From positions 129,951-193,950 of the forward strand of contig JABSRZ010000007.1 in assembly GCA_013214705.1 (NCBI GenBank): a stretch of DNA of 64,000 nucleotides, read 5' to 3'. The translations under genes were made by a program, and so were the position numbers. The notes below the pieces were generated by a model. That model was given only the letters and a program-made list of their open reading frames with translations. It ran no database searches and had not been told where the DNA came from. Shown here piece by piece: positions 12,274 through 13,359 of the stretch. Each line of letters starts with the position of its first letter. The first letter of the stretch is position 1. This DNA is from Hyphomicrobiales bacterium. GTDB taxonomy: Bacteria > Pseudomonadota > Alphaproteobacteria > Rhizobiales > OSC116.

Positions 12274-12441
12274 ATGGCTAAACCTACAACGATTAAAATT
12301 AAACTACAAAGCACTGCAGATACTGGTTTCTTTTATGTGACCAAAAAAAATGCACGTACAATGACTGAAAAAATGGTCAAAAGAAAATATGACCCAGTGG
12401 TTCGTAAACATGTAGATTTTAAAGAAACTAAAATTAAGTAA
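12274..12441 (+). CDS. rpmG: 50S ribosomal protein L33
   Basis: A 55-residue basic protein starting [20 protein letters not shown] and ending FKETKIK. It is the L33 family of the large ribosomal subunit, contacting 23S rRNA near the E site. It has no four-cysteine zinc site, so it is the zinc-independent (C-minus) form. The purine stretch AAAAGAGAAAG lies just before the ATG. A strong intrinsic terminator follows 22 bases downstream, and its own promoter probably precedes it, as expected for a highly expressed ribosomal gene. Confidence 0.96.
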
Positions 12442-12463: not shown

Positions 12464-12489
12464 AGGCGCTTTTCGGAGCGCCTTTTTTT
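12464..12489 (+). terminator. Intrinsic terminator after rpmG
   Basis: Perfect 7-bp stem AGGCGCT / AGCGCCT (12464-12470 and 12477-12483) with loop TTTCGG, running directly into seven T residues (12483-12489). Confidence 0.93.
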
Positions 12490-12594
12490 GTCAAATTTTG
12501 GCTAAATTAATTGTATAATTTGCCAAATGTACAATTTACATTGTGAATTAAGCAATTATGATGCGAATCAATTCATTGGATTTGGAAATTAGAC

Positions 12595-12708
12595 AAAAAA
12601 AGAGGTCGGTCAAGAATAATATCATCGAGGAGGCCACTCTAACTATTCATCGACCGACCGACCTACGAACCCAGGAGATGCGGCGGACCTGAGCAAACCG
12701 TAGGAATC
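12595..12708 (-). ncRNA. Putative structured small RNA with its own terminator (unnamed)
   Basis: This part of the 486-base gap between rpmG and the thioesterase gene carries two nested structures readable on the minus strand. The 5' hairpin pairs CCTACG with CGTAGG (12699-12704 with 12662-12667), with an inner CAGG/CCTG pairing. The 3' hairpin pairs AGGTCGGTC with GACCGACCT (12656-12664 with 12603-12611) across a 44-base loop and is followed by one C and then seven T (12601 down to 12595), as in an intrinsic terminator. The loop shows CCTCCTC, able to pair with ribosome binding sites, a feature of several rhizobial trans-acting sRNAs. No open reading frame covers it. I do not recognise the Rfam family. 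Confidence 0.6.
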
Positions 12709-12714
12709 TGTCTT

Positions 12715-12742
12715 AACATAGAAAATTGAAATAAGTTAACAA
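12715..12742 (-). promoter_or_regulatory. Probable promoter of the minus-strand small RNA
   Basis: On the minus strand TTGTTA (12742-12737) and TATGTT (12720-12715) are separated by 16 bases, giving a start near 12708, just before the first hairpin. A perfect palindrome ATGTGCACAT (12752-12761) lies ten bases upstream of the -35 box and could be a regulator site. A related ATGTGCATAT occurs at 12817-12826. Confidence 0.45.
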
Positions 12743-12827
12743 TTTCCTAACATGTGCACATATTTTGTATCAAATTGATTCATAATGCAACTCATTGATG
12801 CCCACATGGTTAATAAATGTGCATATG

Positions 12828-12873
12828 ATGCCTAAAAAAACACCACATTTAGTGGGTAAAGTGGTTTAGGCAT
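12828..12873 (-). terminator. Long stem-loop, probable terminator of the thioesterase gene
   Basis: ATGCCTAAA (12828-12836) pairs with TTTAGGCAT (12865-12873), and inside it CCAC pairs with GTGG. Read on the minus strand, an inner CCAC-TAAAT-GTGG hairpin is followed by TG and then seven T, as in an intrinsic terminator. It lies about 55 bases after the thioesterase stop codon. Confidence 0.55.
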
Positions 12874-12927: not shown

Positions 12928-13359
12928 CTAATTTTTGGGAATCGAATAGGTGACAGTGGCATGTGCCACCATTTCATCACCTATATTTTTGTCATTTACG
13001 CTATAAATCGCCACCTCGCCCATGGCCAGCGTTTTGCCGATTTTTAACACATTGGCTTTTGCCAGGATGGGCGCATTGGCCTTTGGTTTGCGCAAAAAAT
13101 TAATATTCAAATTGGTGGTAACAGTATGTAATTTAGGGCCGATTTCATTTAATATCGCGCAATACATGCTGACATCGGCTAAAGCCATCATGGTTGGGCC
13201 AGATATAGTACCGCCCGGGCGCAGATGGCTCTCATCCACAGCTAACAACATTTCGGCATAATGATTGCCCAATTTTACAATTTTGCCCATTATATCGCTT
13301 TGTGGAAAATGTTGATCTAGAAATATTTGCATGGTATTTAAGTTAAATTGACCCATCAT
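12928..13359 (-). CDS. PaaI-family hotdog thioesterase
   Basis: A 143-residue single-hotdog protein. The GGTISGPTMMALADVSMY stretch (about residues 48-65) is the conserved helix of the PaaI/4HBT family, with the catalytic-position aspartate in ADVSMY. Relatives hydrolyse acyl- or phenylacyl-CoA thioesters in the cytoplasm; the substrate here is unknown. It stands 41 bases before the MATE gene stop on the same strand, so it may be the last gene of that transcript. A stem-loop with a T-tract follows it. Confidence 0.85.
   Translation of the reverse strand: MMGQFNLNTMQIFLDQHFPQSDIMGKIVKLGNHYAEMLLAVDESHLRPGGTISGPTMMALADVSMYCAILNEIGPKLHTVTTNLNINFLRKPKANAPILAKANVLKIGKTLAMGEVAIYSVNDKNIGDEMVAHATVTYSIPKN

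What the first reader, a model, noticed from the sequence alone, without database searches (positions are those of the whole stretch)
12595..12742. Unnamed structured small RNA downstream of rpmG on the minus strand
Seen: two hairpins with long perfect arms, a terminal hairpin followed by seven T, a promoter-like pair 16 bases apart at the right distance, and a 44-base loop displaying CCTCCTC. A threefold GACC repeat (12652-12663) allows two pairing registers. Established: trans-acting rhizobial sRNAs often expose anti-Shine-Dalgarno C/U-rich loops. Inference: a Hfq-type regulator of translation of about 114 nt.
Basis: partly seen in the sequence, partly recalled or inferred. Interest (0 to 1): 0.62.

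Follow-up and report, generated by a model that had tools for sequence, protein, structure and literature searches.

The report
EcpR1 cell-cycle small RNA, known family
The stretch encodes a marine relative of EcpR1, an already described bacterial small RNA that damps cell-cycle genes under stress in root-nodule bacteria; the RNA itself is ordinary, but a repeated DNA motif in front of its gene hints at how it may be switched on.

Summary
In detail: a structured RNA gene lies on the minus strand at 12599-12707. It is not unnamed: it matches Rfam RF02500 (Atu_C6/EcpR1) over the full model, 84.1 bits against a cut-off of 60. Covariation is strong, rpmG is convergent downstream in 75 of 86 loci, and 104 of 199 genomes of the order pass the cut-off. 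Genus-mates include an 'OCS116 cluster' marine bacterium. EcpR1 of Sinorhizobium meliloti (PMC4414408) is stress/ppGpp-induced, Hfq-independent, and represses gcrA and dnaA through loop 1 (UCCGCCGCAUCU). Extras: (1) the gcrA site occurs in 9 of 27 genomes tested but in none of 4 from this genus, although loop 1 is unchanged; (2) loop 2 (CCUCCUC) is also nearly invariant, and I found no tested role; (3) TTAACC[A/T]T lies upstream of ecpR1 in 42 of 81 loci against 9 of 187 control intergenic regions. It resembles a CtrA half-site, but CtrA-specific spacing is not enriched.

The parts
12599..12707 (-). EcpR1 small RNA gene (Rfam RF02500, Atu_C6), full model 1-113
   Evidence: cmscan 84.1 bits, gathering 60, E 2.5e-10 over the window; single copy in the genome
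12662..12704 (-). SL1 hairpin
   Evidence: fold; covariation in helices 1 and 2
12676..12687 (-). loop 1 UCCGCCGCAUCU, the mRNA-pairing loop shown in S. meliloti
   Evidence: near-invariant in 51 aligned relatives; unpaired probability 0.99 for its core here; function from PMC4414408
12604..12659 (-). SL2 hairpin, also the terminator stem
   Evidence: fold; helix 3: 8 of 10 pairs with two-sided compensatory change
12627..12639 (-). loop 2 GAGUGGCCUCCUC, near-invariant, role untested
   Evidence: CCUCC kept in 56 of 59 covariance-model-selected relatives
12595..12601 (-). seven-U tail of the intrinsic terminator
   Evidence: sequence
12715..12742 (-). weak promoter-like pair TTGTTA-N16-TATGTT
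   Evidence: sequence; not listed by the scan; not kept in the genus by eye
12806..12813 (-). TTAACCAT element upstream of ecpR1 (CtrA-like half-site; binding untested)
   Evidence: present in all 5 genus regions aligned; enrichment of TTAACC[A/T]T in relatives 42 of 81 vs 9 of 187
12274..12441 (+). rpmG (ribosomal protein L33), convergent conserved neighbour
   Evidence: ORF; opposite strand, downstream of ecpR1 in 75 of 86 loci, 63 of them within 600 nt
12464..12483 (+). intrinsic terminator of rpmG
   Evidence: terminator scan
12928..13359 (-). upstream neighbour, probable hotdog thioesterase (named by eye), where most relatives have pleD
   Evidence: ORF; neighbour comparison

Best explanation
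This is the EcpR1 small RNA of a marine bacterium of the OCS116 kind (Hyphomicrobiales). SHOWN here: family membership, structure, single copy, synteny with rpmG. INFERRED from S. meliloti: it is made from its own promoter between the upstream gene and rpmG under starvation or stress, ends at the SL2/U7 terminator, and represses mRNAs by pairing its exposed GC-rich loop 1 with them, lowering translation or causing RNase E decay, without Hfq; the result is slower cell-cycle progression. Which mRNAs it hits in this genus is NOT shown: the classical gcrA 5'-UTR site was not found here and dnaA has no convincing site.
For: Rfam RF02500 at 84.1 bits, full length. One copy in the genome; 0 of 14 control genomes match. 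Order: 134 of 199 genomes with a match at E <= 0.001, 104 over the cut-off; 5 of the 6 genus genomes listed. Covariation: 96.7% of cells paired, 14 of 24 pairs with two-sided change, 0 of 500 shuffles as high on each of five measures, slid controls 32-55% paired. rpmG convergent downstream in 75 of 86 loci, as described next to rpmG in S. meliloti and Methylosinus sporium (PMC12403871, passages). Loop-1 core unpaired in 59 of 59 relatives over the cut-off (mean probability 0.98). The gcrA leader of 9 of 27 relatives carries GCGGCGG, 8 of them at -107 to -134, close to the S. meliloti site at -109 to -95.
Against: No transcript data for this organism. In the window's genome the best loop-1 duplex with gcrA is no better than chance (33 of 100 shuffles as good) and with dnaA worse (89 of 100). 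Loop-1 complements are not clearly enriched: 25 sites (the gene itself included) vs 18 reversed-pattern sites, 148 vs 121 for the 9-mer. On the upstream side the pleD neighbour usual in relatives is replaced by a thioesterase and a MATE gene.
Confidence: 0.88

Rival explanations
1. One reading: an Hfq-dependent regulator whose CCTCCTC loop masks Shine-Dalgarno sequences of many mRNAs.
For: CCUCC is kept in 56 of 59 covariance-model-selected relatives while the SL2 stem changes freely with compensation, so loop 2 is probably under selection.
Against: In S. meliloti EcpR1 was not among the RNAs co-immunoprecipitated with Hfq, and its overproduction still elongates cells of an hfq mutant; a 2-nt change in loop 1 abolishes repression and the phenotype. 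CCUCCUC is only partly exposed: unpaired probability over 0.5 in 44 of 59, against 59 of 59 for loop 1.
Confidence: 0.12
2. Loop 2 binds a protein or a second set of mRNAs, giving a two-headed small RNA, as suggested by the DsrA comparison of 2011.
For: Near-invariant 13-nt GAGUGGCCUCCUC on a freely covarying stem; Reinkensmeier et al. drew the DsrA comparison (PMC3927594, passages).
Against: No tested role in the passages and sections I read; both confirmed targets use loop 1.
Confidence: 0.4
3. A 3'-UTR fragment of the upstream gene or a cis-antisense RNA of rpmG rather than an independent gene.
For: The upstream gene is on the same strand; rpmG is convergent.
Against: 218-nt gap to the upstream gene; the upstream gene differs between genera while the RNA stays; rpmG has its own terminator before the RNA (12464-12483); independent transcription shown in S. 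meliloti.
Confidence: 0.05

Closest known systems
EcpR1 / SmelC291 / SmrC10 / Sra33 of Sinorhizobium meliloti (Rfam RF02500 Atu_C6)
   Same: Full-length match to the family model, two stem-loops, loop 1 UCCGCCGCAUCU, loop 2 with UCCUCG, next to rpmG
   Different: pleD upstream replaced by thioesterase + MATE; gcrA leader site not found in this genus; AT-rich host; expression and targets untested
Putative EcpR1 of Methylosinus sporium 5 (PMC12403871, passages)
   Same: Same family, adjacent to rpmG, two stem-loops
   Different: That one is seen in transcriptome data; targets unresolved there too
CcnA of Caulobacter crescentus (PMC8959179, passages)
   Same: Noncoding RNA acting on cell-cycle regulators (ctrA, gcrA) in Alphaproteobacteria
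   Different: Transcribed from the replication origin region; acts on ribosome-binding sites with a CCCC loop; homology to EcpR1 was not tested here

Membership tests
EcpR1 (RF02500) | Score over the curated covariance-model cut-off | tested here: met
   84.1 bits vs 60, model 1-113
EcpR1 (RF02500) | Two stem-loops supported by compensatory change | tested here: met
   14 of 24 pairs, 0 of 500 shuffles as high
EcpR1 (RF02500) | Conserved loop-1 motif UCCGCCGCAUCU | tested here: met
   Present exactly
EcpR1 (RF02500) | Location beside rpmG | tested here: met
   Convergent with rpmG
EcpR1 (RF02500) | Location downstream of divK-pleD (S. meliloti and most relatives; not part of the Rfam definition) | tested here: not met
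   Upstream neighbours are a thioesterase and a MATE gene; a PleD-like end is upstream in 64 of 79 loci, none of them of this genus. Microsynteny only, so it does not exclude membership
EcpR1 (RF02500) | Represses gcrA and dnaA through loop 1 | tested here: inconclusive
   No gcrA or dnaA site better than chance in this genome; needs experiment
EcpR1 (RF02500) | ppGpp- and stress-induced | not testable with these tools
   No expression data
Hfq-dependent anti-Shine-Dalgarno sRNA | Hfq dependence | not testable with these tools
   S. meliloti homologue is Hfq-independent
CtrA-regulated gene | TTAACCAT or TTAA-N7-TTAA upstream, bound by CtrA | tested here: inconclusive
   TTAACCAT present and kept in the genus; N7 spacing not preferred over N9/N10 across relatives; no binding data

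The most novel reading that the evidence does not exclude
ecpR1 is itself under direct control of a cell-cycle transcription factor, most likely CtrA, through a conserved TTAACC[A/T]T element. EcpR1 would then be an RNA arm by which CtrA restrains dnaA and gcrA in species where CtrA does not bind the origin. In addition, its target set has been rewired in lineages such as OCS116 that keep loop 1 but lack the gcrA site.
Probability: 0.25. Interest if true: 0.62.

Novelty: new member of a known kind. Interest (0 to 1): 0.27.

Why it matters
The RNA is a known regulator found in one more lineage, so the finding itself is modest. Two side results are testable and would matter to people working on alphaproteobacterial cell cycles. 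The near-invariant loop 1 outlives its best-known target site (gcrA), so another conserved target or partner probably holds it. A conserved TTAACC[A/T]T element upstream of ecpR1 suggests transcriptional cell-cycle control. In S. meliloti CtrA does not bind the origin and any control of replication start is called 'indirect, unknown' (PMC4433202, passage); a CtrA-EcpR1-dnaA route is a concrete candidate.

Tried and rejected
Rejected: two pairing registers; anti-Shine-Dalgarno loop as the main seed (S. meliloti mutants); other Rfam families (the other six hits up to E 1 are on the opposite strand and far below their cut-offs). The 44-aa ORF overlapping the RNA on the plus strand (12558-12692) was not pursued.

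Led nowhere: searching for new loop-1 targets. The 25 near-complement sites in the window's genome (context, where the ORF context is printed for all 25 but the script located the site itself in only part of them) and 48 of the 49 exact RTGCGGCGG sites of one relative, G051 (the other is its ecpR1 gene), gave, by eye, no convincing site at a gene start; orthologues were not followed. Over five genus genomes the 9-mer counts exceed the reversed-pattern controls only slightly (148/121, 49/41, 121/110, 166/140, 109/98). dnaA: 30 genomes, start codons chosen mechanically; 2 of 30 (G006, G029) had a duplex that at most 1 of 100 shuffles reached, at -221 and -213, and no common position was seen. 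Duplex energies used the 14-nt loop alone and ignored target structure. A reading of the upstream element as a full CtrA dyad was not supported: at least 7 of 8 matches in 39 of 81 loci at spacing 7, but 53 at spacing 9 and 43 at spacing 10.

Rows and biases: 60 covariance-model hits were fetched, all over the cut-off; the 30 genomes with weaker matches were not, so the loop conservation figures hold for members over the cut-off. Identical EcpR1 sequences were counted once (86 distinct, 59 of them from the model searches). The structure alignment used 51 of those 59. Loci L146-L185 were chosen by an exact sequence pattern; they are left out of '56 of 59' but are in the 86 synteny loci and the 81 upstream regions. 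With the model-selected set alone, TTAACC occurs in 36 of 58, TTAACC[A/T]T in 24 of 58, and TTAACC in at least one member of 17 of 25 families. The 187 control intergenic regions come from the fetched loci, many of them of this genus, and are not matched by taxon. gcrA: 29 of 30 genomes had the gene (G088 did not), start located in 27 (one of them with 132 nt of leader).

Full report
WHAT IS THERE. The minus strand at 12599-12707 carries a complete match to Rfam RF02500 (Atu_C6, described as EcpR1): 84.1 bits, cut-off 60, E 2.5e-10, the only family over its cut-off in the 64 kb window (alignment). The RNA folds into SL1 (loop UCCGCCGCAUCU, 12687-12676) and SL2, followed by seven U. MFE is -42.2 kcal/mol against -31.3, sd 3.0, for shuffles; z -3.64. 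The genome has one copy and 0 of 14 control genomes match.

Hairpins, U tail, CCTCCTC, the GACC repeat and the 16-nt-spaced promoter-like pair are at the stated places. The '44-base loop' is 21 nt in the predicted fold, because the stem goes on beyond the G+C-rich arms. The second pairing register costs 9 kcal/mol (-33.2 vs -42.2) and has probability 0.0 in the ensemble. The promoter-like pair is not listed by the scan, and by eye its hexamers are not kept in the four other genus regions aligned.

WHOSE GENOME. Contigs of four genus-mates carrying EcpR1 have the same lengths as contigs of the MAGs NORP94, NORP194, NORP83 and BB6. One of the four, NORP83, is titled 'OCS116 cluster bacterium'; the others are titled Hyphomicrobiales or Alphaproteobacteria. 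I therefore read the genus as OCS116-like marine Hyphomicrobiales; the window's own record is not named. Of the 6 genomes listed for the genus, 5 have the RNA; the sixth is 75% complete.

RANGE. In the order sample 134 of 199 genomes match at E <= 0.001 and 104 pass the cut-off. In the class sample 10 of 385 match, 8 of them outside the order, all 8 in two families, f61 and f142. The pattern scan, designed to fit this genus, f142 and one f61 sequence, returned 40 records. Twenty of them are titled Parvibaculum, Parvibaculaceae or Rhodobiaceae; others include Labrenzia, Roseibium and Kaistia. The link from f61/f142 to the Parvibaculum names is my inference. The 2011 survey named five Rhizobiales families (PMC3927594, passages).

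STRUCTURE IS SELECTED. On 51 relatives 96.7% of cells pair; 14 of 24 pairs have two-sided compensatory changes (93 cells), with 0 of 500 shuffles as high on each of five measures and slid controls at 32-55% paired. Loop 1 is near-invariant and its core is unpaired in 59 of 59 (mean 0.98). Loop 2 GAGUGGCCUCCUC is nearly as conserved (CCUCC in 56 of 59), but is exposed with probability over 0.5 in only 44 of 59. All these relatives score over the family cut-off.

NEIGHBOURS. rpmG lies downstream on the opposite strand in 75 of 86 loci, within 600 nt in 63 and further away in 12. It was not found in 11, of which 10 had at least 800 nt of sequence on that side. Upstream, a PleD-like C-terminus is found in 64 of 79 loci with enough sequence and a DivK-like one in 7 (identity by short motif and by eye). 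That is the S. meliloti arrangement divK-pleD-ecpR1-rpmG. In the five loci of the window's genus with upstream sequence a thioesterase and a MATE gene stand there instead.

HOW IT WORKS. From S. meliloti (PMC4414408; abstract, sections 6, 7, 11, 12, 13 and part 1 of section 15 read, other passages seen): transcription from a sigma-70 promoter stimulated by ppGpp; repression of gcrA (site -109 to -95) and dnaA (around the ribosome-binding site and start) by loop 1; RNase E-dependent decay of dnaA; no need of Hfq; overproduction gives long cells. Transfer of this mechanism to the window is inference.

TARGET CHECK. Of 27 gcrA leaders with a located start, 9 have GCGGCGG within 200 nt upstream: 8 at -107 to -134 and 1 at -48. 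Their duplexes with loop 1 reach -18.1 to -24.5 kcal/mol, with 0 to 22 of 100 shuffles as good. None of the 4 genomes of the window's genus with a gcrA hit has that word. Their best duplexes are reached by 33 (window's genome), 78, 7 and 51 of 100 shuffles; the 7 is a different, G-rich stretch at -50 in one genome. For dnaA the window's genome gives 89 of 100. So loop 1 stays unchanged where the gcrA site is missing, and another target or partner probably holds it; my search for one failed.

UPSTREAM ELEMENT. An unbiased word count on one locus per family (25 families) ranked AACCTTA and AGGTTAA first among 7-mers (9 families each vs 0.8-0.9 expected). TTAACC occurs upstream of ecpR1 in 56 of 81 loci vs 29 of 187 control intergenic regions of similar G+C (0.47 vs 0.48), and TTAACC[A/T]T in 42 of 81 vs 9 of 187. 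The element keeps its distance to the RNA (sd 36) better than to the pleD stop (sd 212) in the 46 loci measured; without two outliers the values are 30 and 84 in 44 loci. In the window's genus TTAACCAT is kept in all 5 regions aligned; TTAA-N7-TTAA lies near the promoter in 4 of them, but not in the window. TTAACCAT and TTAA-N7-TTAA are CtrA motifs (PMC11527210, passage; TAA-N7-TTAAC in PMC3616915, passages, whose motif scan covered protein-coding genes only). Against CtrA: spacing 7 is not preferred over 9 or 10; the leading words spell TTAACCTTA rather than TTAACCAT; related genomes share ancestry and many loci are Parvibaculum relatives; the controls are not matched by taxon; and the three S. 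meliloti promoter constructs 5'1, 5'2 and 5'1-204 had similar stationary-phase activity (text; I did not see the figure). Searches for a printed link between CtrA and the ecpR1 promoter found none in the listings and passages seen; the library lacks most subscription papers, supplements were not read, and of the 23 papers only some were opened. The M. sporium authors mention CtrA motifs in that genome in general.

VERDICT.

Noticed in passing
window 12806-12813 (-); 81 upstream regions of relatives: TTAACC[A/T]T element upstream of ecpR1, about tenfold more frequent per kb than in control intergenic regions (2.96 vs 0.27); CtrA-like but unproven.
   Followed up: partly
gcrA leaders, L052-L080: The loop-1 complementary word GCGGCGG, mostly at about -110 of gcrA, is present in 9 of 27 genomes and in none of 4 of the window's genus.
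   Followed up: partly
L034 and L035 (G122 contigs C95 and C39): One genus-mate MAG carries two EcpR1 copies; the upstream region of the second is nearly that of G176 (L036), so a strain mixture is likely (contamination given as 5%).
   Followed up: no
L037, L038, L039: In the 1.3-1.4 Mb AT-rich family f4, loop 2 is closed by a small extra stem (GG...CC type) that leaves CCUCCU in a loop of 8 nt in the predicted fold (sequences, loop size).
   Followed up: no
window 12830-12871: Inverted repeat GCCTAAA...TTTAGGC between the thioesterase gene and ecpR1, with a T run on the minus strand: perhaps the terminator of the thioesterase gene (by eye; the scan does not list it).
   Followed up: no
L116, L117: Two members of f61 have an altered SL1 inner arm (CCUGGGUCCGCC instead of CUCAGGUCCGCC) with loop 1 unchanged.
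   Followed up: no
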